Positions 7,001 to 57,582 of a stretch of DNA of 64,000 bases are shown here, piece by piece. The notes below the pieces were generated by a model. It had not been told where the DNA came from. It saw nothing but the letters and a program-made list of their open reading frames with translations, and did not search any database. A program made the position numbers and the translations under genes. Every line of letters starts with the position of its first letter. Positions within the stretch are counted from its first letter, which is position 1. Source of the stretch: Kappaphycus alvarezii (Eukaryota > Rhodophyta > Florideophyceae > Gigartinales > Solieriaceae); NCBI GenBank assembly GCA_002205965.3, contig NADL03000659.1, forward strand, positions 744,001-808,000, written 5' to 3'.

Positions 7001-8600
7001 ATAATCACGGTAAAAATATGTAAGCTCTGGACCGGCTGCGTACAGGATATATAATCGGGAAAGTAAAATTCGGCTGGGTTCTGAAACGGTACAAGCATTC
7101 TATACATTAGAAACACGAGATTTCTTCGAAAGCTAGACTTTCTTTTCAAGCAGCCGTGAAGAAGCCAGCTGGTATTAGAAGTTCCCAAAAGGACGTGAGA
7201 GAGTTTCCAATTATTCTAATTGTATTAACAGTTTCTATGTATGCTTCCTATTATAGTGAACAGCTGCATCGTAGTATTAGCTTTTCAGTTATTTTAGAAA
7301 TTCTTCAGTTAGTTCTTGATCATTAGAATCTCGTGATGTGAGCATCCAGAAACTTCCACTATCTTGGCGAGCGTCTATAGAGATAGTACCGACTGCAAGA
7401 TAGAGAGAGAGTGGAAGAGAAATGCTGACACTGAATAGGCCCTCTCCTTCTCTAATTTTATACACTATTTATCTAATTTCCTCTTTGAATGCACCATGTT
7501 ACTTTTAGGAGAAAATCTCCGTCTGATACGTAATATGTTGCCTTCGATGACGTTACCAATTTTAAAACTTCTTCTCTCTCTACATAAACGTACTAAAAAA
7601 TTGTAACTGTAATGAATATAGGACGCTTTGAACTTTTGAGCATCTATTCTGTAAATCCTTTAAGTTCTGATATGAAAGAATGGTAGACAGATGGAAGGTT
7701 GCCAAAGAAGCAAATATCAAGGTCGTTTTGAAGGATAATTTTCCAAAATTTTCCTGAGAATGCAGAACTGCAATTTGTTATCTGTCAAGCTATAGATCAG
7801 ATTATAAATTGATGATAAAAGGATTACTTAAAGAAATAGGAACGATTGAATGGGAAAGATAAGTTTAGCAATACTGTAACATGTTTTTGGCACAATGGAA
7901 TGTGTTGATGTTTCTAAAATTCTCGCTTTGTATTCATACTTTTTTGGCGCCGCTCGGTAATTCTAGGGCTGAAAACTGTAAAACAAGGTGAAATTAAGAA
8001 CTCGTAGATCAATGCGCAGTAATATATTTCATTTCCTTAGTAGTAAAAAGGGTTGAGGAATGCAAAAAGTACAATAACATCAATAAAAGCCATCGAGGGC
8101 AGCACGAGGATTAGTTGGACCCTCCATAAGTATTGAAGAAAACAGAAATACTTCTTGTACTAACACTGGTTGTACCAAGCCCATCGAAACCCCCACAAGT
8201 AAGCCAGACTCTATGATTGGTTCCAAAAGCTCAGGCCAAAAAAATATGTACTGAAAGGAGTTTCGAATAGCTCCCCGATTATCCAGACCTTTCGTGTGGC
8301 TGTATATGACAACAAAAATTAACCGAAACCAAGATAACCGGCAGATTTAACAGAGTCTACGCCGATTACCGGATTTAGATTGGGTGACAAAATTAAGATG
8401 GGGGAGGAAATAGATCAGGTCATTCTAATTAATGAACGCCCCCAAGGAAGTTTGTTTCTCAAACCAACACTACGATTACTATCAAAAGCACTGTAAGGAT
8501 AATTTTCTCAACGCTGGCGAAACAAAGTCCGGCAATAAACCCTGATGATACCCACCCCACCCTTCCCACAACCGTCCACTTCACACAAGCACCGTCTTAC
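4064..8600. other. AT-rich stretch, nothing recognised
   Basis: Only short ORFs (at most about 75 codons) occur on both strands, with no recognisable protein motif and no clear repeat. The base composition is strongly AT-rich. It is probably old, decayed repeat DNA. Confidence 0.5.
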
Positions 8601-24060: not shown

Positions 24061-24092
24061 TCACTGTACAGTAAATAAAGTATAAAATTGTA

Positions 24093-26172
24093 CAGTGGGG
24101 CCCACGCAGTGCTACTATTCTGTGCCAAAAGTACACAAAACGCACTACTTTGAGTTGCCCAAAATTTGAAGTTGAACCGAACAAATCATCCAATTCACAT
24201 CATAAGCTCAATTATGAGCATTTGACATTTCTTGTTAGAGAATTAACTACGCTTTGCTCGATGGGGGGCTTCCTTCGCCCTCCTCCGATAAATCACAGCA
24301 TCTGAACATCCGCTCTCGACAGCTATCTGCTCGATGCTCTGGAATCGAGAGTGAATATCCGGTTCTGCATGCAGTGGGACAAAAAATCCATCGCCTTCAT
24401 CACTGTTGCATTCACCACTTCTTCTTCTTCGTGTCCCTCGCCTTCGCTCACACATTTGGGTGCATCTTCGACCATGCCTTGAAAAATATCCTTATCGTGT
24501 TCAAGGTTCAACTAAAAGTTAATATCTTTTTCTCCCGTCGCGTTTACACACTCATCGATAAAGTGATAACTTCCAACATTATAAAGGCACAAAGTCTGTT
24601 AAGCAGAGATCATATCCTTAAAACTGTTATTTCCACTGTGCACACATGACATTTTCACTTCCACTGCAGTTATATATGCAGCATAAACTACAGGAAAGAT
24701 ATGGGCTTTCATCCAACATCGCGCAATGGTTGCAAGAGTGATTTTATTCCAGCTAGTAGCGACCAGTTCACATACACCCAGCATATGAGGATCAAAACCA
24801 CCTCATAACCATCCTGCAAACCACGAATTATTCTCCTCGCAGTTAAAGAAAATCTCTTTGCTTTCACTGGTCTCCGAGTCGCTCACAATGGTGCACAGCA
24901 GTAATAGGAGGTATCTGGATTTGAACGCGGCAATTATTACGATGTCAATCGGCTGATGAAGTGCTGTACAGTTGGGGGGCAGAGTTAATATATCTACTTG
25001 ACCTCTCTTATCCGATAGGTCAGTTACGCTTGAGCCACAGTTATCCATCAGTAAGACACAGCGTCTAGAAGTGAACTTTCCAATGAATGGGAGAAACAAT
25101 TCAATGAACCACCGACGAAATGTGGCGGTATCCAACCATGCATACTTTTTTCTAAAGTACGGCACTGGCGGAGATTCCAACCGAAAGCATCTAAGATGTT
25201 TTCTCGTACCAATCGGAGCCTTTGTAAATTTGGCAGAGCCGTCTGCGTTCGTGCATACGTATGCCGTCACCTTGTCCTTTGCTTTCATTGCTCTCGTTCC
25301 ACGCACTAATTTTCGATATTCGAAACAGGCCAAATGAGATCTTCGAGGCAGCAGTTTGTAGAACAGTCCTGTTTAATCGACGATAAAATACAGTCAAGGC
25401 CGTAATCCTTCACTATTTTCCTTATTTGAGTAACATCTGCTGCAAAATGTACTGTAGATGCAAAACAAGCATTTCAACACAATGAACAGAACGCAATAAG
25501 TGACGCCTATCAACTCTTAACACCCAGCTATTCGTGGGGGATGTTTTGCATTTTTTGTTTCTGTGGTTCACAGGCGCAAGTTTGAAGAGGATCGTAGCGA
25601 GTCACGAGTGCTTTCTGTTGGATAATCTAATTGGTTACGAGCATCATAGCTTATTTTGCAGCTTATAGAAAGTTGAGAACATTCTTCTCAATGACCTGAA
25701 ACGGTGACAAATGAATTTTTTTTGATTCAAGTGAGATGTGCTGGTTTTGGCTTTGTTGCAAAAAAGTGCTTGCGCCACGCTTAATCTTTGTGACAGTACG
25801 GTGAGAAATTGAAAATGGCTTCATTAAGGTGGACGCATTATAACCGCTTGACAACAGAAGAGCAATTGCAATTTGGTTGCCGATATTAAGCCTGGATCTT
25901 TTTGTGCGTAAAGTAAACGGTCCTACTGTCATCGTGATGCTTTAGTTTTCTCGGGTAGATAGCAAAAGGCGCCTAGTAACGGTGCAAAGACAACTGTGTG
26001 GTAGTAACTGTAATAGGGACGTTCCTTGAGGAGTGATCTAATCGGAAGCACGGCAGGACCCCATCAATGTTTCCTACCACATCGCTCAAGATGTGCCACG
26101 TGAATACGGGTGGCACTAAATAGAGGACGGCACCTGTTCAAAGTAGCACTATTGCGAGGCCCCCATATACTG
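24093..26172 (-). mobile_element. pogo/Tigger-like DNA transposon
   Basis: A 2.08-kb element bounded by imperfect terminal inverted repeats. The left end begins CAGTGGGGCCCACGCAGTGC. The right end, read on the other strand, begins CAGTATATGGGGGCCTCGCA, and both continue into a shared 'tgctact' block. Each end is flanked by TA (24091-24092 and 26173-26174), the target duplication expected for pogo and Tc1/mariner elements. It encodes a reverse-strand DDE_1 transposase, described separately. The ends are clear and the coding region is only moderately damaged, so this is one of the younger insertions in the window. Confidence 0.8.
24243..25932 (-). pseudogene. pogo/Tigger-like DDE transposase (inactivated)
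   Basis: Transposase of the pogo element, read right to left. The N-terminal part (25932-25663) has a helix-turn-helix-like segment NIGNQIAIALLLSSGYNAST. The catalytic core continues in another frame: D-stop-TGLFYKLLPRRSHLACF (near 25379-25322), where the usual 'NADETGLF' motif has its Glu codon replaced by a stop. Then KAKDKVTAYVCTNADGSAKF, LLMDNCGSSVTDLSDKRG (second catalytic Asp, near 25050) and LTLPPNCTALHQPIDIVII (third Asp in 'P-I-D', near 24960). The C-terminus (24784-24243) is in two registers and ends in an acidic then basic tail. The nonsense codon beside the first catalytic Asp, plus frame changes, mean it cannot make a full enzyme. It lies entirely inside the terminal repeats at 24093 and 26172. 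Confidence 0.8.
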
Positions 26173-26189
26173 TAGGCTTTAGACTGGGC

Positions 26190-26208
26190 TACTGTACTGT
26201 ATACAGTA
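26190..26208. repeat. TACTGTA/TACTGTA/TACAGTA footprint-like cluster
   Basis: Three heptamers lie at 26190-26196 (TACTGTA), 26195-26201 (TACTGTA) and 26202-26208 (TACAGTA). They sit in the 51-bp gap between the TA of the pogo-like element and the TA of the Tc1-like element. The sequence matches the footprint left when a TA-CAG...CTG-TA transposon excises. Confidence 0.7.
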
Positions 26209-26227
26209 AAATATTACTTAGCTCCTA

Positions 26228-27761
26228 CAGTGCCGGAAATTCAATTACGACACCCACCCTATTTGCACTAAAAAGATAACCAACCCAGGAAATAGCGCGA
26301 AACTTTGCCAAACGTATTTTTTATATATTATTTAAAGCACCAAAGTTTCGTAAACATTTGACAATTATTTTTTTAAAAATATCAAAAAAGGCTACCAGAG
26401 TGGGGAAATCTGATTACGACAGGGAGTGTCTTTAGTACATTATCATCAAGGAAACACACGTGTTAGTATTTCGTCTTCTTTCCCCTATTCTCAAGCACCT
26501 CTCTGCACCGACTGGTCATGCTTTTGACAAGGTTGTAACGTAATTCTTGCCCCAACTGACCCCACTCAACAAGAATGCAACGTTTAAGTTCAGCGACAGT
26601 GTCAAACTGCCTTCCACCGCAGTAAACTTTCCTAGAAAGCACCCCCATATGTTCTCGATAGGATTTAAATCTGGAGAACGAGCAGGCCATTGCAATATTC
26701 AAATTTTTTGACGCAAACCACTCCAACGTCAACTTAGCCTTGTGTATAGATGCGTTATCTTGTTGAAACTGCCAAGGCCCAGAGAACATAGAAGCTGCAA
26801 ACGGCATTAAGTAGCTCTCCAGCGTTTCGCAGTACTTTGTAGCGTTCTGCCGGCCTGAAAGAAACGCGATTCTCGAATAACCCCCTCGCAAAAAGCAGCC
26901 CAAACCATCACCCCTCCACCCCATTCTGACGGCGAGATAAAATCGTTTCTGGTGTCGTAAATCATGCCAGTATGATTGGCAACCATCGGGCCCATCCAGA
27001 TTCCACTTCTTTTCATCCGAAAATACCACACGAGCCCATTGGTTCCTTGACCAGTTGTGCCTCTCCCGTGCCCACTCTAGCCGAGCTTGCATATGAGTTG
27101 GCGTCAGCGGAAGGGACAGTTTAAGCTTCTGGAATCGAAATGTGGAGCCTCGGACAACAACTGGCGGATGCGGCGGCTCGTAACTGGTAGGGAGAGGTCG
27201 TTCTTGAGTTTTGTTGAAGTTGTCAGTGATTTGGAGGCCTCCCGGTGGAGTCGACGCAAGGCAGAATCAGTGATTTTGCGGTTTTTGCGCCTTTTTTTCG
27301 AATCCATATTTTTTGGGTCCTTAAGAAACAATGAAATGCAAGACGAGACCGATTGACACGCCTCGCTATCTCTGCGACAGGTAGCTTTAGCTTGTGAAGC
27401 TCGAGGATGCCGCCCTTTTCTCGTTCAGTCAAACTGGGCTTGCGACCCATGGTGTGTGCCGTGTTTCGCGGTCAGGGTCAATTCGGAAGTATGCTGCAAT
27501 GGTATGCAGTATAATAAAGCGTTGATATTGGCGGGAACGTCGCAATACTGTTGAGTATTGCTCAACTGTCGTAATCGATTTCCCCCTTTTTGGTAGCCTT
27601 TTTTAGATTTTTTAAAGAAATAATTGGCAAGTCCCTCCGAAACTTTACTCCTTTATATATATCATATAAAGAGAATGGGTTTCCCAGATTTGTTGTATTT
27701 CCTTGGTTTGTTCTCTTTTTAAGGTAAAAAGAGGGGTGTCGTAATTGAATTTCCGGCACTG
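26228..27761 (-). mobile_element. Tc1/mariner-type transposon with IR/DR ends
   Basis: A 1.53-kb element. The outer terminal repeats are near-identical: both ends read CAGTGCCGGAAATTCAATTA and on to 'cgacaccc', flanked by TA at 26226-26227 and 27762-27763. A second inner copy of the same motif occurs at both ends: 'ggaaatctgattacgacag' near 26404-26422, and its counterpart 'ggaaatcgattacgacag' near 27567-27584 on the other strand. Each is preceded by a shared 'aaaaggctacc' block. Long inverted repeats of about 200 bp with paired direct repeats are the IR/DR arrangement known from Sleeping Beauty-like Tc1 elements. The encoded transposase is on the minus strand. Confidence 0.88.
26463..27450 (-). 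pseudogene. Tc1-like DDE transposase (frame-broken)
   Basis: Reads right to left. The start MGRKPSLTEREKGGILELH (27450) opens a paired-like helix-turn-helix. A second frame gives [20 protein letters not shown] and the second helix-turn-helix up to about 27135. A third frame carries [19 protein letters not shown] into the catalytic core. That core has [16 protein letters not shown] (first Asp), [15 protein letters not shown] (second Asp) and, after a one-base register change near 26706, [16 protein letters not shown] (Glu). Register returns near 26640 for [10 protein letters not shown]. The Asp-to-Glu distance is consistent with the Tc1 DD34E signature if one base is missing. All catalytic residues survive, so the copy is recent even though at least four frame changes prevent a full product. 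It ends at 26463, inside the element. Confidence 0.85.
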
Positions 27762-27763
27762 TA

Positions 27764-28182
27764 GGAGCACTGTCGTAGCCAAGAAGGGACGGATATACAC
27801 CTAGCATTACAGTGTAAACTGACATTAGCCCTATCACCGAGTGGAATTGCGAGAGGGACAGTACAGTACGGTACCGTGGCGCCAATGGAGTATTCCGTAC
27901 TGTACTGAAACCTTAGTCGGATACTGCACTCAAATTGATACAGGGTAGTGGTAGTGGACGAGATCTGTATCTACATTGCTGTTGGCATGAGAGCTGGAAA
28001 ACACACTCTACCAACCGCTTTAGCAGAAGTTCGTCGTCAGTCAAGGTCGGGAATTTACATTTTTTTTTCGTTTAGAGACGTGTTGTAGACTCTCTAAATC
28101 GTCACTCTGATCCACATTACTCCCACACCCTCAACCGGGTTGTACATTTAATGACTTTCACCGAGATCTACCGGTTTAGGCT
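27764..28182. promoter_or_regulatory. upstream region of the pseudouridine genes with TGTAC motifs
   Basis: A 420-bp gap between the Tc1-like element and the glycosidase start. A cluster of palindromic TGTAC-type motifs at 27858-27908 includes TACAGTA at 27862-27868 and TACTGTACTG near 27896-27908. No TATA box or start-site motif is secure. A promoter role is inferred only from position. Confidence 0.3.
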
Positions 28183-29151
28183 ATGACTGTGATGGCTGCT
28201 CCTCCGCCGACCCCTGTGCTTGAAAAGAGGCTCAAACCTGGTCAGCTGTACGTACACCCAAAAGTAGCCGACGAACTTCGAAAAGGACGCCCTGTTGTTG
28301 CTCTCGAGTCCACAATCATTGCGCATGGTCTGCCCTACCCCGACAACATTCAAACTGCGCAAAAGCTCGAAGAAACAGTACGCGCCCACAATGCTACACC
28401 AGCCACCATCGCCGTTCTTGATGGTGTCCCGTTCGTTGGACTCACACCCGGACAAATACGTCAAATCGCCTCCCCCCGCAAGCGTGTACAAACTAGCCCG
28501 CCGCGATTTGCCCCGTGCTTTGCACTTCGTCTCACAGGGGCAACCACAGTATCAGCAACCATGGAGATTTCTGCTGCGGCAGGCATCTCTGTGTTTGCTA
28601 CAGGAGGCATAGGAGGTGTTCATCGCCATGTAACAGAGTCGTGGGATATATCAGCAGACATCACAGCCCTCGCGGAGATATCGCAGCTTGTCGTCTGTGC
28701 AGGCGCTAAGTCTATTCTGGATGTACCCAAAACCCTCGAAGCCCTCGAAACAGCATCGGTTCCAGTCCTGGTCCTTGGCAGAGACACTACCACGTTTCCA
28801 GCGTTTTACACACGAGGAAGCCTCCCAGCACCAGGTCTCGTCGAAACCACGGAAGCCGCAGCAAGGGTGTTTCAACTAGGTCGTGAATCGCGTTCAGCGA
28901 AAGGCATACTGCTCGCTGTCCCAGTTCCGAGGGAGTTCGAGGCGGATGCCGCAGTCATTGAAAGTGCGACCCAACAAGCGATTTCAGAGATAGATGAACA
29001 GAGACCGCCTTTGCTACCTCAAGAAATCACTCCCTTTTTACTGAAAAGGATAGCGAAAATCACTGATGGTGCATCTTTGAGGGCAAACGTCCATCTTGCA
29101 CGAAACAATGCTGCTGTAGCGCACATGTTGCAAACCATCTTTGCGCAATGA
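28183..29151 (+). CDS. psuG: pseudouridine-5'-phosphate glycosidase
   Basis: Cleaves the C-C glycosidic bond of pseudouridine 5'-phosphate to uracil and ribose 5-phosphate (PsuG/IndA family). The 322-codon frame spans the whole domain. VVALESTIIAHGLPYP (Glu42) is the conserved entry motif, TGGIGGVHR lies at 140-148, and VVCAGAKSILD carries Lys176, the expected Schiff-base lysine. The C-terminus NVHLARNNAAVAH is typical. Residues 97-117 do not fit the family, but the +1 register over the same bases reads SVYKLARRDLPRALHF, the conserved 'K.sRRDLP' block. So two compensating one-base shifts, one in a run of six C near 28471 and one near 28525, displace a conserved lysine-containing stretch. The first Met gives a length close to bacterial PsuG. 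No targeting peptide is obvious. It overlaps the kinase start by four bases (ATGA), so it may be half of a bifunctional protein. Confidence 0.88.
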   Translation: MTVMAAPPPTPVLEKRLKPGQLYVHPKVADELRKGRPVVALESTIIAHGLPYPDNIQTAQKLEETVRAHNATPATIAVLDGVPFVGLTPGQIRQIASPRKRVQTSPPRFAPCFALRLTGATTVSATMEISAAAGISVFATGGIGGVHRHVTESWDISADITALAEISQLVVCAGAKSILDVPKTLEALETASVPVLVLGRDTTTFPAFYTRGSLPAPGLVETTEAAARVFQLGRESRSAKGILLAVPVPREFEADAAVIESATQQAISEIDEQRPPLLPQEITPFLLKRIAKITDGASLRANVHLARNNAAVAHMLQTIFAQ

Positions 29152-33912: not shown

Positions 33913-34660
33913 TTGACGCTACTACACACTTTTAGATGTGGGGGTATCCGCATCAACGAGCAATTCTGGTGCGATCAGATCAATCCGACAAATCTCGAAA
34001 TCTCCAGGTCCTCAAATGACCATGACCTGCAACCTGTCCACAGTGGGAAAGGAGAGATTCGGTTCACTGCAGCGCCACGGGGATTTGCAAACCCTCAGGG
34101 CTACCCGTCCCGATCGAGCTCATTAAATTACTGTAACCTCAACTCGTACTGTACAGTGCATGTATTGTACAGCACGGTACAGTAGAGAAGAATATTACAG
34201 TACGGAAAGTGTCGTACTGTTCCTCGGAAGCCATTGCATCCCCATGATTCGATCATTGATAAGCTTGATCTAATTTTGTATTGGCTTGACACTTCTGGAC
34301 TATCCCACAGTTCAGTACTGCATGTCCCATGCAGCACGACGGTCCTGCGGGCCGACCTGCGGGTAGGGGGGTAGACGAGGAAGTTGGCGGGCCGGAGTTC
34401 GGCGGAGGTCGTGGTGCCTGTGAAGGCAGCCGAATCCTTGCGAGAAATAGTCAGCCTCATAGTCTCACCAGGCATCCTGGGGCTTATGGCATTGTTGGCA
34501 GCGAATTGAGAGGGGGTCGGCATAAACAGCTAGGCCGAGATGGCGTTGTAGAGTGAAGGGCCAGTTCGCCTTAGGGACCGACGCGGTTGCAGGTTGAGCA
34601 GTGAGGAGGGCAGCGGGCGGACGGCGAAAGGACTGGCCACGAATTCGGAGACGGGCGGCT
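33913..34660. promoter_or_regulatory. topoisomerase I upstream region with TGTAC cluster
   Basis: Between the topoisomerase start (-) and the reverse-transcriptase remnant (+). At 34145-34222 there is a dense cluster of palindromic motifs, including TACTGTA at 34147-34153 overlapping TACAGT, then 'tgtacagcacggtacagta', 'attacagtacgg' and 'gtactgttc'. No other regulatory signal is clear. G/C-rich sequence from 34330 on probably belongs to the decayed retroelement. Confidence 0.3.
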
Positions 34661-34664
34661 TAGG

Positions 34665-36066
34665 TTGAGTGGCGTGAGGAGATACTCGAGTTTGCGGTTC
34701 GCCGCATCTCCCGCAAAACGTCTGCTGGACCTGACCGCACGCCGGCGCCTTGTTGTCAACTCCTCGTCCAGACTTGAGCCAACCCAAAAGCTAGAGTCAC
34801 GGGCGAGGGGGTCCTCACCCGACTCGTCGCTTGGATCGCCAGAGGCGACCTGCCATGCTCTGTCCTGCCTCTCGTGGCTGCTGCAGCTCTGCTTCCGCTT
34901 CGGCCAAAGCCATACGAGATCCGGACCATTGCTGTTGGGTCGGGCCTCCGTCGCCTGGTTACGAAGATGCTACTCCCTGCGGCAATCGATAACATCCGCG
35001 ATTCCTCGCCCCTTTCCAGACGGCAAATGGAATCAGGCCTGGAATGGACGCGTTTGTCCACGACACGCGCACCCTACCCGTCGTTTCTCCTGCCGCTTTG
35101 ATACTATCACGGTCCCCATTGACGCGCACAACGCCTTCAACCAAGTTGATCGCCAGTCAATGCTCGACCACCTGCCGTCTTTGACCTGGACAACAGGTAT
35201 ATTCGCCCAGTTTATTAACATGGTTTACGGAAATACGCAACCTCGGTTGCTCGTCCGAACCGCCACCACACGACCATCGCGAGTGCCCAAGGTACACGGC
35301 GACCCGGTCAGCATGCTCCTGTTTTCCCTCACTGCCCAGCCGCTCATCCGCCAGATCGCAGAGGAAACAGGTGTCGTCATGAACCATTGGTATGCTGATA
35401 ACAGTACGTTCATCGGGTCCCTCGTTGACCTCCGAAGGGCCCTCCGCCAACTCCGTGACGAAGGGCCCGCAGACGGCTTGCAACTCAATGCTGAGAAAAC
35501 GCGCATCTATTGGCCAACTGTCCCGCGGCCAGCGCGCGAGGCTTTTCTCCGTGAGTCCCGCCTCGCCCATTGCTCCTCCGACAAGTTCGAACTATTGGGC
35601 GCTCCAATCGGCAACCGCCCGTTCACAGACTCGTTCCTGCAAGCCAACATCGATAGCTGCCTCCGCACCCTACAGCTGCTTCACAAGGTCGACGACCCCC
35701 GCGCGCGCTACCACATGCATGGCCTGTGCGCAACGGCCTGCCCAGTCAGCTTGCCTTCAAGCTCGCCGACCCGACAGACGCACGTCCCGTGCCGAGGTGT
35801 TTGACTCCCTGCAAGGGTCGTTGTTCGCGGATCCTAACGGTGTCACGCTCACGGATAAAGTATGGTTGCAGGCTACCTTGCCCTTCCGACATGGTGGCCT
35901 GAGCATCACACTTGTCAAACTGTTCGACCATGGTGGTGTTGCCTTAAGTTTCTTTGACGCGGAACCGGCCCGTGCGCCTCTGGAATCATTGGCAAACACC
36001 GGCATGACACGCTCCGCGACGTCATTGCTTGCGGTATCGCCCGTGCAGCATGCCTGGGCCGCCTGA
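34665..36066 (+). pseudogene. non-LTR-type reverse transcriptase remnant
   Basis: Reverse transcriptase fragment in a strongly GC-rich, three-frame patchwork. LPLRPKPYEIRTIAVGSGLR (34889-34950, one frame) is the 'rPI.vg..lrRl' finger block, and ANGIRPGMDAFVHDTRTL (about 35025-35080, another frame) the 'G...G.e..vh' block. The long frame then gives VPIDAHNAFNQVDRQSML (35115-35168), which includes the motif A Asp. GDPVSMLLFSLTAQPLI (35300-35350) is motif B. MNHWYADNSTFIGS (35380-35421) is motif C, with the expected second Asp changed to Asn. LQLNAEKTRIYWPT (thumb) follows. After another shift, TLPFRHGGLSITLVKLF (35877-35927) matches a 'LP...GGLG' block seen downstream in such proteins. Endonuclease and RNase H domains were not seen. 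It lies between two intact-looking cellular genes. Confidence 0.72.
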
Positions 36067-36099
36067 TGGAGATCCCGCTCCTCGTGCCCGATCGCGTGC

Positions 36100-37363
36100 A
36101 ATGTCACCGTCGTCTCACCGTTCAAGGATGACGTACGATCAAAGGCCACGCGGGAAGTGGGCGGTGCTGCTGCAATTGCGTACCGCAACAAGGTGACCGC
36201 GGCGCAGCGAAAATTGTCGCGCCGACTCCCCCCCTGCCCCTAGACAAGCCCAGAAAGGCCTCCACTTTCCAGTTCCAACCATTGGCCCTCGATTCCCTCG
36301 GTTCGCCGTGCCCTGCTACCATCCTGTTCAGAGAGGGTCTCTTGCTGGGCTTTGCGGAGAAGTTTAACACCTCCGGTGAATTTGTCCGGCACGCACATCG
36401 ACCGGGCATTATTAGTTGCATGGTAGTCTGCTGTTGCACAATTTATTTTTTGGGCATGTCGCAGCACGTGGCCGACGTGGACCATCCGATTGGAGGCATT
36501 AGCAACATATATTCGGACACCCTTTGCACTAATGCCGTAGAATATGGCTCATGTGATGCGCCAGTGCAATTCGGTTCGGCAAGTCATCATTCATGAAGCC
36601 TTAAAACCTGACTTGTCGCAGTATTGATATGCTTACATCGGTACAGAACTGTGCCGTTACGTGCATAAATGTGCAAATGCATTTAGGTACAGTAGGGGGT
36701 CAGTTAGTGGTGTTTAACACTCGTACAGTACAGTAGTAGCCTGCTGTACCGTAACAATACAAAGCAGATCGAATTAAAATTCAATTATGATGCTTACAGT
36801 TGGAAGAGTATCCAACTTTTTGCGCTCAGGTGGCAGAAATTGTGACAAGCTCATCCACCGTAACTTTACCAGATCGGCATTGGATCATTGATGATGTTAT
36901 CCAACGAATTGGTTACCACTTGGCGCGCGTCTTGTCCAATGAGATTGCACAAATTCGCATGATGACAGGGATTGGAATGCCGTTGCCAGATCGCCATCCT
37001 GAAAGTTTTTGCGAGTCATCCAGTGGGTGGCACATGCAAGGCGCGATCCTCCATCTACAAGCGCCAAACCATGCATGCGTCTCGTGTTTGGACCCTTGCG
37101 AGCAGTGATCAGGACTGCACACCTACTGACTTTTCACATATGCACCATCTCACACTCTTGTCGGCATACCTCGGGTTCACCGCACAGTCCAAGTTGCCTT
37201 TCGTATCGAATCGTTATCCGTACTAAAGTCACCGAAAGGCAAGCGCAGATATCGTTTCGACCAACTCTTTTTAACCTACCGCATGACACAACACACCTGT
37301 AAACCAGCCGAACTACCACCCGTTCCCCATACTCGTCGCACTTTCCACGAGGCCGGTTTAACC
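36100..37363. promoter_or_regulatory. intergenic region upstream of the SPFH gene
   Basis: Probably the tail of the reverse-transcriptase remnant up to about 36.6 kb, then upstream sequence of the SPFH gene. A TGTAC-type cluster occupies 36686-36760, with TACAGTA at 36724-36730 and 36729-36735 fused in a 5-bp step. A 102-codon frame at 36800-37108 has no recognisable motif. Confidence 0.3.
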
Positions 37364-42247: not shown

Positions 42248-43268
42248 GGGTTGGCGTTTGTCAAGTGGAGGAATGTTAGGTGCCGATGTCGCTACACTCT
42301 CCTCAACTTGCTTTCGAAAGCGGGGTCGTGGGCTGGTTGATTGCGGCTCGAGCAGTTGGCTGGCCGGTGGATGGGGGCCGGTTGCGGGGCAGGGCGCTTT
42401 GAGCTAGGGTTGTATAATATTACGCCTTAGAGACGGTTTAAGGGAACCACAATTGGGCTTACCGAATGCATGATGGAGGAAATGCCCCTCTTTGAGTTTG
42501 CAAAGCTATTCGACTTGAGACTCCCGAAATAGGGAGCCTTGAAGAGGAACAAGAAAAAATTGCAGGAATTTGTACAGTACAGTAAAGTACAGGACTGTAC
42601 AGCAACAGTACCAGTGCCGCGTTGGCTGCGTTGAGCAGCACTGTACGATCCCTATTCGAATCATGGTTCAGTTGTAATCATCACCAGCAAAGCCAGTCGC
42701 TGACACAAATTAGCTTACTTTTATGATTTCTTCTATTTTCTCTTTCCTTTATCCCACCTTACTTGTCCACGAATGAAATCATGGTGTAAGCTGCTCTATC
42801 ATCATTACTGTAAACCCAGTTTTACCTTTACTGTACATCTATTATTTGCTGATTCCAATAGGGACAGATATTCAATCGCCCGTCAACACACCGAGGAAAA
42901 TAAACGAACCAATTTCGCATTGAATTTCGGCGCAACGAACATCTCCATTGTCATTTTTTCTCCACCTGGCAAATTCTGAATGGTTGTCGTGCCTAGTACG
43001 AAATTAGTGGCCATCAGTGCCTTGCGCCATCATTCCAAAGACACCGACGTCTAGCACTGATCGTACTATTTTCGATGCTCAATTCACCTCTCATCACCCT
43101 CTATTGCCCGTCGATCTGCTTATTGTATCTGCGATAGCACACTCCTCTCTCCCCGCACCTTCTTGAACTCCCCTCCCATCATCGTCGACTGCATTCCATT
43201 TCCCTCCACCGTACTCGTAGTGACATCTAGTAACCCGCTCCCCGATCACCGCCCCTCCCATCATCACC
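42248..43268. promoter_or_regulatory. divergent intergenic region with TGTAC cluster
   Basis: Shared upstream region of the ThuA-domain gene (-) and the phosphate carrier (+). TACAGTA occurs at 42573-42579 and 42578-42584, followed by 'agtacaggactgtacag' and 'cactgtacg' up to about 42647. Pyrimidine-rich sequence directly precedes the carrier ATG (43080-43268), consistent with a leader. A 68-codon frame at 42773-42979 shows no motif. Confidence 0.35.
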
Positions 43269-49674: not shown

Positions 49675-51680
49675 TGTGGATGGGGGTGGGGAGAAGGGGT
49701 TGGACGGAGACAGTGGGGAGGGGCGGTTGGGTAGGGACGGGATGTGGGGGACGAGAGGGGTGGGTTGAGAGGGTAGGTGTCAGGAGAACTTGAGATGTTG
49801 CGAAACGAGCCGCAGTTGAGCTTGTTATTTCGCGAGAGGAGAGGGCATCGGGGGTGACAATTGGGGAAAGTTGATTGTTGGTGTGAACAAGAGGGCAGTG
49901 GGTTTGACTTGGGGAGACCGAGCGGGCTTATGGAGGAAAATAAAAAGGTGCCGGCAGGTGAAAGGAAAATATGGACGAAAATTGGGACAGCGCACCGGGA
50001 TTGCTGTTTTGAGACCTTCCCTGCTGGCAATCGTTGTATTTGTCTGCACGGGAAGGGACACTGGACGACATTTAACTACATACCGTACAGCCGCTTTCAG
50101 CTGGGGTATATTTTTCCAGAAATTTTTGCGGATGTTGCTCTTCCTTACAATGGGTTTTCTTGACATAAGCAGGATGAACGATTTTTCGTCCTTTTTTAAA
50201 ACATGCACAGTACTGTACAGTATGGTACAGCACTACATTTGTTTTCAAGAATAAACAAATACTGTGCTGTACAGTACAATTCTGATGCAGCACTGTACAG
50301 TAAAGTACTGTACTGAAAATCAACGTACTGTACTACTACAAAAAGTCCAGGCAAGCCGGTTGTGGCTGCAAAGACTCTCAATGCGGTCCAAAGCGCATCA
50401 ATAACAGCCAAAAAAACTGCAGCACGAAGCCATCGTAAAGTACAGTACAGTACAGTACCGTACAGTCCATCATTCATAGTTTTAATTGCAGACTCAATCC
50501 TGATTTAGCGGTTTAAGACAGCGCTGATGCCTCTTCTAGCTAATCTCGAATAAGGATGCAGTGCCCCTGACAGTCAGTTGCCTGTGTTACAGTAAAGTGC
50601 AATGTGTACTGTGCTGTACAGAACTGTACGCTTCTTACGTAGTAATAAATTTTTACTGTACCTGTACCGAACAACATTGCACAGTACAGTACAGTACAAT
50701 ACAGGAAACGTTTATCAAGTGCTTGTTGCTACTGTAATCACAGCCATTGAACTACAACCGCGAATTCAATGGCTCTGCCCTGCATCGCAGTGCCGATTTA
50801 CCGCATGTGGCACTAGACGATAATTGTAATAATTTTCCATCCATTCCCAATCAATTGCAAGTTGAAATCCGTTGCAGAGGCTCTCTTCACCGTGAGACTC
50901 CGCTTGCGATCCTGTGGCCATCACGTACTGCAGTGTTCTGCCAAAGGCCTCACCTGCCTGGCAACACATGCTCTCTGCCCCTTTCATCCGCACTCGTTAC
51001 CATCGAAAACTATTGCAAACTGTTGCTTTCGGTGAGAAACTGGCACTTGCTTGTCGTCCACCCAAGGCCCTGCGTCGCGGAATCGCTTGCCAAGTTACTC
51101 ATCAAGTCATCAAGTATGACCTTTGTCTCAAAGCCGAAACGGCGATCCGTTCCACCCTGTACTAAATGACATAAAAATAATCGTAGCCATGACCGTGCTG
51201 TCAACAAGTCCCATGACAGCCGTTTTGCCCCCCTGCGCCCCTGCGGGTAAACGTCGTCAGCCATATCCAGATCGACAACTACCTTGTCTCAGGAAGATAG
51301 GGTGGCAGCTCCAGCAACTATTTTACCTTGTGCCAACTGAGATAGTATGAGTAGTCATGAACCTCGATGGGAACGTTTGCGTTCCTGCGTTCAACCCTCT
51401 CAAGAAGCTGCTAGTGCCAGAAAGAGAAACCCTGGTGCCTGCATTCATTTTTTCCCTTCCGAAAACTTGATGTGAAACCTCACCTACTCAGTCAAGGCAT
51501 CCTCTTCTCCGATGTCTCCATCCCTTTCCGTCCGTTCGAAGATTGTGTGGCACAGAGAGGATAAAAAGGTGTAAACCGAAACGCGAAATGTGGTACAGTA
51601 CGTACCAATATCGACAATTAAACTGGTGGTGCATCACGATGGTTATCGGGGAGGCGACTGCCTTCGCACTGGTTCTCTCA
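49675..51680. repeat. upstream region rich in TACAGTA/TACTGTA arrays
   Basis: The densest TGTAC-type arrays of the window lie upstream of the flippase start. 50206-50340 begins with TACTGTA at 50211. 50436-50466 has TACAGTA at 50441, 50446 and 50451 in exact 5-bp steps. 50585-50705 has TACAGTA at 50685 and 50690. Overlapping frames at 50747-51350 show no family motif. No promoter element was recognised. A regulatory role and a transposon-footprint origin are both possible. Confidence 0.55.
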
Positions 51681-55099: not shown

Positions 55100-57320
55100 T
55101 CTCTAGATTAAAATTTCTATATATTTTTTAACAAGATATAAGGCAAGCTTTCTAACTGGTGGAAATCATGACAAAATGAAAGAAATTTTGGTTAATACAA
55201 TTCGGTTAATACTTCCTCGGCGTTACAATCTGAGTCTGCCCGGCTATTACTTGCGATTATAGTCATTTTTGGATTCAATGATTGGACTGCAGACATCACC
55301 ACCTACGCATATCTCCAAGTTTCTGGGCTTCTTTCTACATATATATTCAAAGGGAACCCCGTACTCTAGTCTGAACTCGAATAAAGCTCCTGCTCACACT
55401 ATAGGGTCGTTGCGACGCAGGATATCTTTGGCAAACGACTCTCCACGAGCATCACCAAGAAAACATGAGTATGAAAACTCTTCGCATGGGCCCAGCATTC
55501 TACTTTCTATTCAACGAAGGAATTCTGAAGGGACTCAGCGGAAGTTACCGTCGATGACTTTCTCCGCTCTGGTAATAAAGAATTTCGAGAGCTCTCTAAA
55601 CTTATAAACATTAAAATGAAAGAAAAATCTGCGCTACATTCAATGTTTACCGGCTTCATGCTGGATTAGAAGCATGAAACCTTAGTTGTTGACCAAATGT
55701 CGTACACGCGCAAGCTCTAGTGCCTACTGGCGGACGAATCATTCACGCGATTCAGATATGTGTGAATTCTATTAGCTTGATTGTCAACCTCCAGACCGGT
55801 CTGTCTATTCGAGATTGCGCAGCTACCGCAGGTTACCGAAAAGGTGTTCCACTCAACCCGCTCGCAAATACCGGCATGGAGGAATAAGGCAGTTAAATAC
55901 GCAGTCGGTACGCGAATTCAGCTGAAGATACGCAAACGGGATCTCAAGAAACTTCCTATTGTTGGTTTTAGGATTTATCGTTCGCGATCAATCAAGAATT
56001 CACATAACAGCTCTGAAATATCGTCTTAATCGCCGACGGTAAAGATAGAGTAGCACCCATTTCATTGAAGTCCTACAAGTATATACGAGTCAGTAGATCA
56101 GCAATTTATGAGAAAGTATTCAATTTTAGCGGAATGTTTGATATTGCGATTGCACCTTTAGAATAGTTGAAGATTATCTTGGAAAGGTCCGTTCTCGTGC
56201 ATGTGCACCGACAGCAAAAGCCTGTTTCACGTCATCTCAAAAGGATCGCGCAGAACCCAAAAGCGAACGATAATCTAATTTTTAGCTACCAGAGAAGGAT
56301 TCCGGGACAGAGTTATATCCAATATCGGCTCAGTGTGGAGTTGTGGGGGGTTAGACGCACAAGAAGAGATCTAAGTTGAGCTGTGGTTGGAACTTGTGTT
56401 AAATCAAGCTGGGTAAAGTCGATCGCTCCAAACCAGTACTTACATAGAACTATTTATAGATAATCATCGAATTGAAATGCAATCGCATGATAGGATATGC
56501 AAAGTTTCTCCCGTTAAAAAGGCCTGAATTTATTTGAAGTAGCTCTTTCGGACCTATTAATCGACACGAGTAACATAATATGACAAGGTGTAAGACTTAA
56601 ATAGCCCAGGTGGAATGGGATGGCAGGACAGCTTGCGATTGGTAAAGATTTGATGAAATATTGCAGTGTGCCACTAATCCGTAACTATTCCAAGTGTACC
56701 AATGGGTCAAAAGTTGTGTCAAAAACTGTAAGGAAAAGTTGTAACGAAAGCAGGGTGCCTAGTAGGGCCGGGTATAAGGTTACTGGTGGTTTTATTCTAC
56801 AAAAAAGTACAGTAGATGCAGTAAATCCGTGTAAAGATGTAAGGATTGCTAAACACCGCGTCAAAAGTAAGTTGGACCTGTGGAATACAATATGGACAGC
56901 CAAAATGTCGCAGAGAGGCCTAAAAATCAAAAAATCAAGCTCTTTTAGGAAACGTTATGATTAGAGAACATCTCGATATTCAACTTGACCAATGGATTGC
57001 TCGATCAAAAGAAAAACTTTGAACTATCCTTACTTGGTAACTTCAACTTTCTTTACTGAAAATGAAGCCCAAAAGATGTCGTACACACACACCTGCTACC
57101 CTCATGTCCGGTAAACAACTTCAACTATTTTACATTCAAATTGATCGCAAAGGTCTTGTAGTGCATCCAGGTTACCCCGTTTCCAACAGGCTATCAGTCA
57201 CTTTAGGTGTGCGCCCTTAGATCATGACTTTCATTTATATTCGAGGGGGCTCTTCATTTTACCAGCTAATTTGGATTCTACCATACAGTGGTCCAATACT
57301 GTCAGCTACGGTACACGTGG
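55100..57320 (+). other. degraded downstream pol region, weakly supported
   Basis: Frames at 55269-55607, 55781-56029, 56167-56379 and 56620-56964 are open but show no secure motif. By position after the integrase, the stretch should hold the end of integrase and the start of copia-like reverse transcriptase. SGNKEFRELSKL near 55570-55607 is reminiscent of the segment before reverse transcriptase in these polyproteins. This is inference. Confidence 0.25.
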
Positions 57321-57430
57321 ATGGTTTGTCGAAACAGGTCTATCCTTTAGTCTACGGTGCATGCAGCCGAAGCTGGACTCTTGGCACATGCCGTGGTGCG
57401 AGACTGTACTGTATGTGGAAAACCTTTTCC
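57320..57430 (+). pseudogene. possible copia-type reverse transcriptase fragment
   Basis: Across two registers one reads KQVYPLVYGA (57330-57361) and then AAEAGLLAHAVVRDC. Joined by position these resemble the 'l.kPLYG..eAG..W' block of copia reverse transcriptase. It lies downstream of the protease-integrase remnant on the same strand, where the enzyme should be. The match is short. Confidence 0.3.
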
Positions 57431-57538
57431 TGATCGGTAACTGCACTTGCTTCTACTTAATTTTAGTAATGTTTTGATTTGATGCCAATAGGCCATGTTT
57501 TATGCTTCATTTTAGATGGAATTCTTTACTACCTAGTC

Positions 57539-57582
57539 TACTGTACCCTTTCCTAGCTACCAACCTCTACAGTAAAGGGTAC
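57539..57582. repeat. short inverted repeat with TACTGTA-type ends
   Basis: 'tactgtaccctttc' at 57539 and its near complement 'cagtaaagggtactg' near 57568 form a short imperfect stem with a loop of about 16 bases. It is of the same TGTAC motif family as the arrays upstream of the genes. Confidence 0.35.

What the first reader, a model, noticed from the sequence alone, without database searches (positions are those of the whole stretch)
26190..26208. TACAGTA/TACTGTA arrays look like stacked transposon excision footprints
Seen: heptamers TACAGTA and TACTGTA recur and fuse in exact 5-bp steps, as TA(CAGTA)n. Examples start at 26190, 26195, 26202; 36724, 36729; 42573, 42578; 50441, 50446, 50451; 50685, 50690; singles at 24067, 27862, 34147, 50211. 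Both complete DNA transposons here are inserted at TA and have ends CAG...CTG. Known: excision of Sleeping Beauty-like Tc1/mariner elements leaves TA + three end bases + TA, that is TACAGTA or TACTGTA. Inference: repeated insertion and excision at the same TA would add 5 bp per visit and build these arrays. A triple copy lies in the 51-bp gap between the two TA-flanked elements. If right, the arrays record past transposition and would be a new origin for a pentanucleotide repeat.
Basis: partly seen in the sequence, partly recalled or inferred. Interest (0 to 1): 0.78.

Follow-up and report, generated by a model that had tools for sequence, protein, structure and literature searches.

The report
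Stacked jumping-gene scars that attract insertions
Short 5-base repeats strewn through this genome look like piled-up scars left where cut-and-paste jumping genes departed, and a young jumping gene now lands mostly beside those same scars.

Summary
The window has 47 TACWGTA heptamers (7.2 expected). The 336-Mb genome has 236,177, against 48,188 for the reversed word. Two-unit steps number 41,390, and 40% of them mix CAG with CTG, which slippage alone would not give. Of all TA-NNN-TA words only CAG/CTG is far above expectation. Isolated 7-bp runs favour the TA-bounded phase (33 seen, 12.6 expected; the four other phases together 64 and 65.1). This is the signature of Sleeping Beauty-type excision footprints, and the window holds a TA-flanked, CAG-ended, Sleeping Beauty-like element. 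New here: a young Tc1/mariner family (T3) sits at the units. In 15 of 18 independent insertions a CWG touches the target TA (background 6.9%), and in 10 of 17 on both sides (background 0.35%). Homologous contigs differ at arrays by 5-bp units and by A/T flips. My reading is that footprints seed arrays, arrays attract further insertion, and arrays grow and turn over. Against it: T3's own ends are CAC, so T3 is not the maker by the simple rule; longer arrays are only mildly TA-bounded; slippage contributes; and no clean empty site was found at an isolated unit.

The parts
26190..26208 (.). Array TACTGTACTGTA followed by TACAGTA (three heptamers) in the 51-bp gap between the two elements
24067..24073 (.). 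single TACAGTA, left of element e1
24091..26174 (-). e1: pogo-like DNA transposon remnant (DDE_1, PF03184, 1.2e-21), left end TACAGTGGGG; right end uncertain
26226..27763 (-). e2: Tc1/mariner element, TA-flanked, perfect 20-bp TIR CAGTGCCGGAAATTCAATTA; broken transposase resembling Sleeping Beauty SB100X; 13 other listed copies at 93-97%
27862..27904 (.). TACAGTACGGTACCG ... CGTACTGTACTG, inverted pair of decayed arrays upstream of the 28180-29151 ORF
34129..34202 (.). cluster of four heptamers and decayed units
36688..36735 (.). single TACAGTA and array TACAGTACAGTA
42573..42611 (.). array TACAGTACAGTA followed by decayed units, between the ThuA-like ORF (- strand) and the mitochondrial-carrier ORF (+ strand)
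42806..42835 (.). two single TACTGTA in the same intergenic stretch
50211..50736 (.). densest cluster: 14 heptamers in 526 bp, with arrays at 50211 (TACTGTACAGTA), 50441 (three units plus TACCG) and 50685 (two units), upstream of the P4-ATPase-like ORFs (- strand)
56808..57574 (.). four single heptamers

Best explanation
The unit TA-CWG-TA is the excision footprint of Sleeping Beauty-like Tc1/mariner elements whose ends are CAG...CTG. Excision leaves the target TA, three end bases with an A.A mismatch in the middle, and the second TA; repair fixes the middle base as A or T at random (the mismatch step is recalled knowledge of SB). TA flanked by CWG is itself a favoured insertion target for Tc1/mariner elements of this genome, as shown for the young family T3. 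New visits therefore fall on old footprints and add 5-bp units, so arrays grow as scar begets target. Slippage and repair of double-strand breaks inside these self-complementary arrays then lengthen, shorten and re-roll them. Shown: excess of TA-bounded singles, CAG/CTG specificity, mixed centres, elements sitting at arrays, T3's target preference, 5-bp and centre-base differences between homologues. Inferred: that footprints of CAG-ended relatives, not T3 itself, made the units, and that target preference drives the growth.
For: TACAGTA/TACTGTA leads all TA+1 to TA+7+TA words in the window (47 vs 7.2) and leads the 3-base class in 12 random loci (60 vs 13.8); TACCGTA/TACGGTA is at chance (7 vs 4.9 and 11 vs 9.4). 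Maximal period-5 runs of exactly 7 bp: TACWGTA 33 vs 12.6, the four other phases together 64 vs 65.1; of eight control units the nearest is TACWC, 19 vs 10.6. Two-unit steps genome-wide: same orientation 24,697, TACTGTACAGTA 9,195, TACAGTACTGTA 7,498, with controls 56, 26 and 17; random orientation predicts 2:1:1. On C1:1-264,871, 27 of 52 steps are mixed. SB leaves TACAGTA/TACTGTA (PMC4378557 and PMC3432063, passages). e2: CAG ends, TA-flanked, transposase like SB100X. T3 insertions: CWG touches the TA in 15 of 18, on both sides in 10 of 17; background 500 and 25 of 7,210 TA. Two of 14 e2 copies end on arrays of two and three units. C467 has GCTGTATGCC where C1 has GCTGTACAGTATGCC. A/T flips at 6 of 38 aligned CWG units against 11 of 1,241 other A/T sites. 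0 of 47 heptamers lie in nine long ORFs, 9,072 bp; even spread would put about 7 there, chance words about 1.
Against: T3 ends are CAC...GTG, so its simple footprint would be TACACTA/TAGTGTA, which is at chance (17 vs 15). The CAG-ended families seen are small: 14 e2 copies and 11 other e1 rows, both lower bounds because 39 of 1,815 candidates were scored; exact e2 end words number 142 against 62 for the reversed word. The excess of heptamers is about 188,000. No clean TA versus TACWGTA difference was found at an isolated unit: none at 5 places in aligned repeats and none for two empty-site queries. The C1/C467 case lies beside another unit and its polarity is unknown. Among 7-bp runs the neighbouring phases ACWGTAC and GTACWGT are also up about twofold (13 vs 6.8, 12 vs 6.5), balanced by two phases below expectation. 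GTACWGTACWGT (34,426) is nearly as common as TACWGTACWGTA (41,390), so longer arrays are only mildly TA-bounded. Same-orientation steps are 60%, not 50%, and long uniform runs exist (e.g. C1:578144), so slippage acts. e2 copies touching any CWG, 2 of 14, are not significant (p 0.25).
Confidence: 0.6

Rival explanations
1. TACWG is a hairpin-forming pentanucleotide microsatellite (like CAG/CTG repeats, with A.A or T.T mismatches in the stem). It expands by slippage, its centre base is flipped by quasipalindrome correction, and T3 merely uses it as a landing pad; the match with CAG transposon ends is coincidence.
For: Long uniform runs, a 10-bp duplication TACAGCTCAG between homologues, centre flips without length change, array ends only mildly TA-bounded, 60% same-orientation steps.
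Against: It does not explain why isolated 7-bp runs are in strong excess only in the TA-bounded phase, nor why CWG and not CSG is enriched, nor a one-step TA to TACAGTA difference beside CTG, where slippage would copy CTG.
Confidence: 0.23
2. TACWGTA is a regulatory motif (for instance a GTAC-core binding site) kept in promoter clusters; Tc1/mariner elements insert there because promoters are open.
For: Clusters lie between ORFs (e.g. 42573-42835, 50211-50736). A zebrafish Tc1 element prefers regulatory regions (PMC7913693, passages).
Against: In the flanks of 71 single heptamers only G at -1 (30 of 71) stands out by eye. Unit number and centre differ between homologues. The adjoining of T3 target TA to CWG in register is not predicted. 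Six singles lie in the first 24 kb, where no ORF of 200 aa was listed, but that is little above chance.
Confidence: 0.07
3. The arrays are the (sub)terminal repeats of a transposon family and spread with it.
For: L010's array matches the ends of many T3 copies in a DNA search.
Against: Read copy by copy, T3 ends at ...AGTG and the flanks beyond TA differ in unit number and order between insertions; three of 18 insertions have no CWG touching the TA. The homologue C467 has the array without T3.
Confidence: 0.03

Closest known systems
Sleeping Beauty excision footprints (Tc1/mariner)
   Same: Identical heptamers TACAGTA and TACTGTA (PMC4378557 and PMC3432063, passages seen).
   Different: Here the heptamers are fixed in a genome in an excess of over a hundred thousand and stacked in 5-bp arrays.
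Target preference of SB, ZB and Bari (palindromic ATATATAT)
   Same: TA target within a short palindromic context (PMC7913693, passages seen).
   Different: T3 prefers CWG-TA-CWG, which is the footprint sequence itself.
Pentanucleotide microsatellites
   Same: 5-bp tandem units, length differences between homologues, some uniform long runs.
   Different: Centre base close to random, excess of TA-bounded singles, one unit in large excess of nine tested.
CAG/CTG triplet-repeat hairpins (recalled)
   Same: Self-complementary strand with A.A or T.T mismatches.
   Different: 5-bp unit, short arrays, tied to TA insertion sites.

Membership tests
Sleeping Beauty-type excision footprint | TA + CAG or CTG + TA, and no other TA-NNN-TA word in strong excess | tested here: met
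   next 3-base words are TAAAGTA 20 vs 9.3 (window) and TAAAATA 49 vs 31 (random loci)
Sleeping Beauty-type excision footprint | unit orientation random (A or T centre) | tested here: met
   40% mixed genome-wide (50% expected), 27 of 52 on part of C1
Sleeping Beauty-type excision footprint | 5-bp gain against an empty TA at the same locus | tested here: inconclusive
   one TA/TACAGTA difference beside another unit; none at isolated units
Sleeping Beauty-type excision footprint | a donor element with CAG ends able to excise | tested here: inconclusive
   e2 has CAG ends and 14 listed copies, but the window copy is broken; activity not testable
Tc1/mariner: T3 | TA target duplication, inverted ends, Tc3-type HTH and DDE_3 transposase | tested here: met
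   (SB100X 5e-29); the copy read on C1 is frame-broken
Tc1/mariner: e2 | TA flanks, inverted ends, Tc1-type transposase | tested here: met
   SB100X 3.1e-12; Tc3 HTH 25.2 bits above its cut-off, DDE_3 20.2 bits below its cut-off of 28.6
pogo: e1 | DDE_1 transposase | tested here: met
   77.5 bits, cut-off 22
pogo: e1 | TA-flanked inverted ends | tested here: inconclusive
   left end clear, right end uncertain
ordinary slippage microsatellite | uniform units, free phase, no excess of single bounded units | tested here: not met
   nearly free phase for arrays of two or more units

The most novel reading that the evidence does not exclude
A self-reinforcing cycle: Tc1/mariner excision scars are the preferred targets of the genome's own Tc1/mariner elements, so the elements build their own landing pads. 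The pads are self-complementary, so later excisions heal in 5-bp register with a re-rolled centre base; they seem to spare coding sequence and grow into a genome-wide pentanucleotide repeat class with no founding microsatellite.
Probability: 0.35. Interest if true: 0.9.

Novelty: new variant of a known kind. Interest (0 to 1): 0.74.

Why it matters
It would give a new origin for a class of simple repeats and a legible fossil record of DNA-transposon excision: the excess is about 188,000 heptamers against the reversed word, or 115,000-129,000 extrapolated from the 12 random loci against Markov models. It would also be a case where a transposon's target and a transposon scar are the same sequence, so that past activity steers future insertion. 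T3, most of whose listed full-length copies are 97-99% identical to the query copy, makes the target preference directly testable.

Tried and rejected
Slippage alone: rejected for the seed by mixed units and the phase of single units, kept as a contributor. Arrays as part of T3: rejected by copy-by-copy flanks and the C467 empty site. T3 as direct maker of the units: not supported, its ends are CAC and TACACTA is at chance. A general GTACNGTAC motif: rejected, TACSGTA is at chance. Empty sites inside repeats among 39 held sequences (241 kb): none at 5 distinct places. Two isolated-site queries from L003, up to 2 mismatches: no match; whether a homologue of L003 exists was not tested, so these are weak negatives. 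e2 family alignment: no gap of 5 bp inside 14 copies. Ends of older T3 relatives: wanted, not obtained. Literature: searches found no paper; one listed 5, 84 one, 119 seven, and 83 listed 10 of 84; none of the listed titles or abstract openings is about stacked footprints or footprints as targets. That is no proof of absence. Species: my guess of the red alga Kappaphycus alvarezii is recalled from genome size and was not tested (searches gave no help).

Full report
OBSERVATION. All coordinates of the finding are right. The window holds 47 TACAGTA/TACTGTA, against 7.2 by an order-2 Markov model and 10.7 by order-3; it is first of 420 words of equal composition. Twelve unselected 10-kb stretches of the same genome give 60 against 13.8 (order-2) or 18.8 (order-3), again first. 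The stretches were set by contig number and position; of the 20 asked for, eight did not exist. In the whole 336-Mb assembly TACWGTA occurs 236,177 times against 48,188 for the reversed word, and TACAGTACAGTA 24,697 times (both strands) against 56. Decayed units lie in 5-bp phase round the heptamers. None of the 47 lies in nine long ORFs (9,072 bp) that I picked from the 13; an even spread would put about seven there, chance words about one.

WHAT THE UNIT IS. Among TA-NNN-TA words only CAG/CTG is far above expectation; TACCGTA/TACGGTA is at chance. In the random loci a few longer TA-bounded words are also in excess (for example TAAATATCTA, 7 against 0.3), perhaps from repeats; not followed up. 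I asked whether single heptamers are shards of decaying arrays. Maximal period-5 runs of exactly 7 bp were counted by phase in the window plus 12 loci: TACWGTA 33 against 12.6 expected, the other four phases together 64 against 65.1 (66.3 in a second simulation). Of those four, ACWGTAC and GTACWGT are up about twofold (13 against 6.8, 12 against 6.5) and two are below expectation, so the contrast is strong but not pure. Of eight control pentamers none shows a like effect; the nearest is TACWC, 19 against 10.6. In the 12 random loci alone the figures are 21 against 9.2, and 26 against 41.6 for the other phases. Single units thus favour TA on both sides, as an excision footprint must.

MIXED UNITS. 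Slippage copies a unit; excision of an SB-like element leaves CAG or CTG at random. Two-unit steps genome-wide are 24,697 same orientation, 9,195 CTG-CAG and 7,498 CAG-CTG: 40% mixed where random orientation gives 50%. On C1:1-264,871, where the place lists cover both strands, 27 of 52 steps are mixed. The surplus of same-orientation steps and long uniform runs (e.g. C1:578144) show that slippage also acts. CTG-CAG exceeds CAG-CTG, which I do not explain. The genome-wide phase test is less kind: GTACWGTACWGT 34,426 and its mirror phase 34,448 against 41,390 for the TA-bounded phase, so arrays of two or more units usually have further, often damaged, CNG beside them.

ELEMENTS. e2 (26226-27763) is a TA-flanked Tc1/mariner element with 20 of 20 matching TIR bases beginning CAG, a broken transposase that matches Sleeping Beauty SB100X at 3e-12 and 13 other listed copies at 93-97% (a lower bound, 39 of 1,815 candidates scored). 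e1 (24091-26174) is pogo-like (DDE_1); its left end is TACAGTG in 5 of 8 aligned copies, its right end uncertain. By the SB rule (TACAGTA/TACTGTA; passages of PMC4378557 and PMC3432063) e2-type excision gives exactly the unit seen.

ARRAYS AS TARGETS. Searching the genome with L010 (a C1 array plus flanks) showed that the array adjoins a young Tc1/mariner family, T3. Of the top 19 full-length rows, 16 are at 97-99% and three at 94-96%. The transposase pieces match SB100X at 5e-29, Tc3 HTH and DDE_3; the C1 copy is frame-broken. I fetched the ends of these 19 copies and of the C1 copy; ranking by match to L010, which carries an array, can slightly favour array neighbours. They are 18 independent insertions, since C586/C631 and C9/C634 share one each. 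One search parsed 16 of the 20; the other four (C133, C506, C513, C792) I read by eye from its printed ends; for C506 the right end was not in the fetched piece. A CWG touches the target TA in 15 of 18, on both sides in 10 of 17; the background among 7,210 TA of the random loci is 500 (6.9%) and 25 (0.35%). C458, C17 and C792 have none. Of 14 e2 copies two (L024, L032) end on arrays of two and three units, one unit of L032 being CGG; counted as touching any CWG that is not significant (p 0.25). T3's own ends are TA|CAC...GTG|TA, so its simple footprint would be TACACTA/TAGTGTA, which is at chance (17 against 15). T3 is therefore a user of arrays and, by this rule, not their maker.

HOMOLOGUES. 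The assembly holds homologous contigs. C467 matches C1 in the same order at three places spread over 56 kb of C1 and 77 kb of C467 and lacks the T3 insertion. Three C1 stretches were compared; in the second only 371 columns aligned, and the part of L008 with one more array and two singles found no partner in the fetched piece. At the T3 site C467 has TACTGTACTGTACAGTAC and C1, T3 aside, about three more units. C467 GCTGTATGCC faces C1 GCTGTACAGTATGCC, a TA/TACAGTA difference with identical immediate flanks, but beside another unit (with an A/T change a few bases to the left) and of unknown polarity. Of 27 gaps in the alignments, 11 lie at units, among them all five of length 5 or 10. A/T flips at CWG centres are 6 of 38 against 11 of 1,241 other A/T sites (p 4e-6). 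Four of the six lie in arrays of changed length, where the alignment may mislead; two do not, one of them (L005:1356) in a single heptamer 3 bp from another. A 10-bp duplication of TACAGCTCAG looks like slippage.

MECHANISM. Chance re-use of the same TA would give few arrays: with some 190,000 footprints among very roughly 20 million TA (scaled) I expect of the order of one to two thousand two-unit steps, against 41,390 (my estimate). The T3 preference supplies a missing factor. I therefore propose that CAG-ended SB-like elements left TACWGTA scars, that TA beside CWG is a favoured target, so visits cluster and add units, and that breaks and slippage in the self-complementary arrays resize them and re-roll the centre. 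The scar and the T3 preference rest on the evidence above; that the same target taste belonged to the CAG-ended makers is inference. The main rival is a hairpin-forming microsatellite later colonised by T3; it fails on the phase of single units and on CWG specificity but fits the array ends and the flips. The decisive observation, clean TA/TACWGTA alleles at isolated units, I could not get: none at 5 places in aligned repeats, none for two queries.

NOVELTY. SB footprints, TA targeting and microsatellite slippage are known. I found no report of stacked footprints or of footprints as preferred targets in the searches named under Tried and rejected; these cover open-access papers only. I rate it a new variant of a known kind. 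On checking, counts and caveats were mended (e1 right end, lower-bound copy numbers, neighbouring phases, the single heptamer near another); none of them moved the odds.

Noticed in passing
window 34403-36490: Reverse-transcriptase element family with 15 long listed rows at 76-83% (RVT_1).
   Followed up: no
L043 and L044 (C749:155401-165400, C28:521093-531092): Two contigs 99.5% identical over 10 kb in opposite orientation: haplotypes or a recent duplication; the contig lengths seen hint at two size-sorted sets in the assembly.
   Followed up: partly
L065 against L010: C1/C467 homologues: a coding-like stretch shows almost no substitution by eye while the whole alignment with its non-coding part is 92% identical. 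Unexplained.
   Followed up: no
L014:9376-10000: Start of a high-copy repeat; 38 scored rows at 95-98%, with an inverted relative at 7095-7600.
   Followed up: no
L013:3189-3434 and 7968-8213: Inverted repeat at 91% about 5 kb apart, possible long-TIR element.
   Followed up: no
genome-wide: TACTGTACAGTA (9,195) exceeds TACAGTACTGTA (7,498), and single TACAGTA has G at -1 in 30 of 71 but C at +7 in only 17 of 71: an orientation bias not explained.
   Followed up: partly
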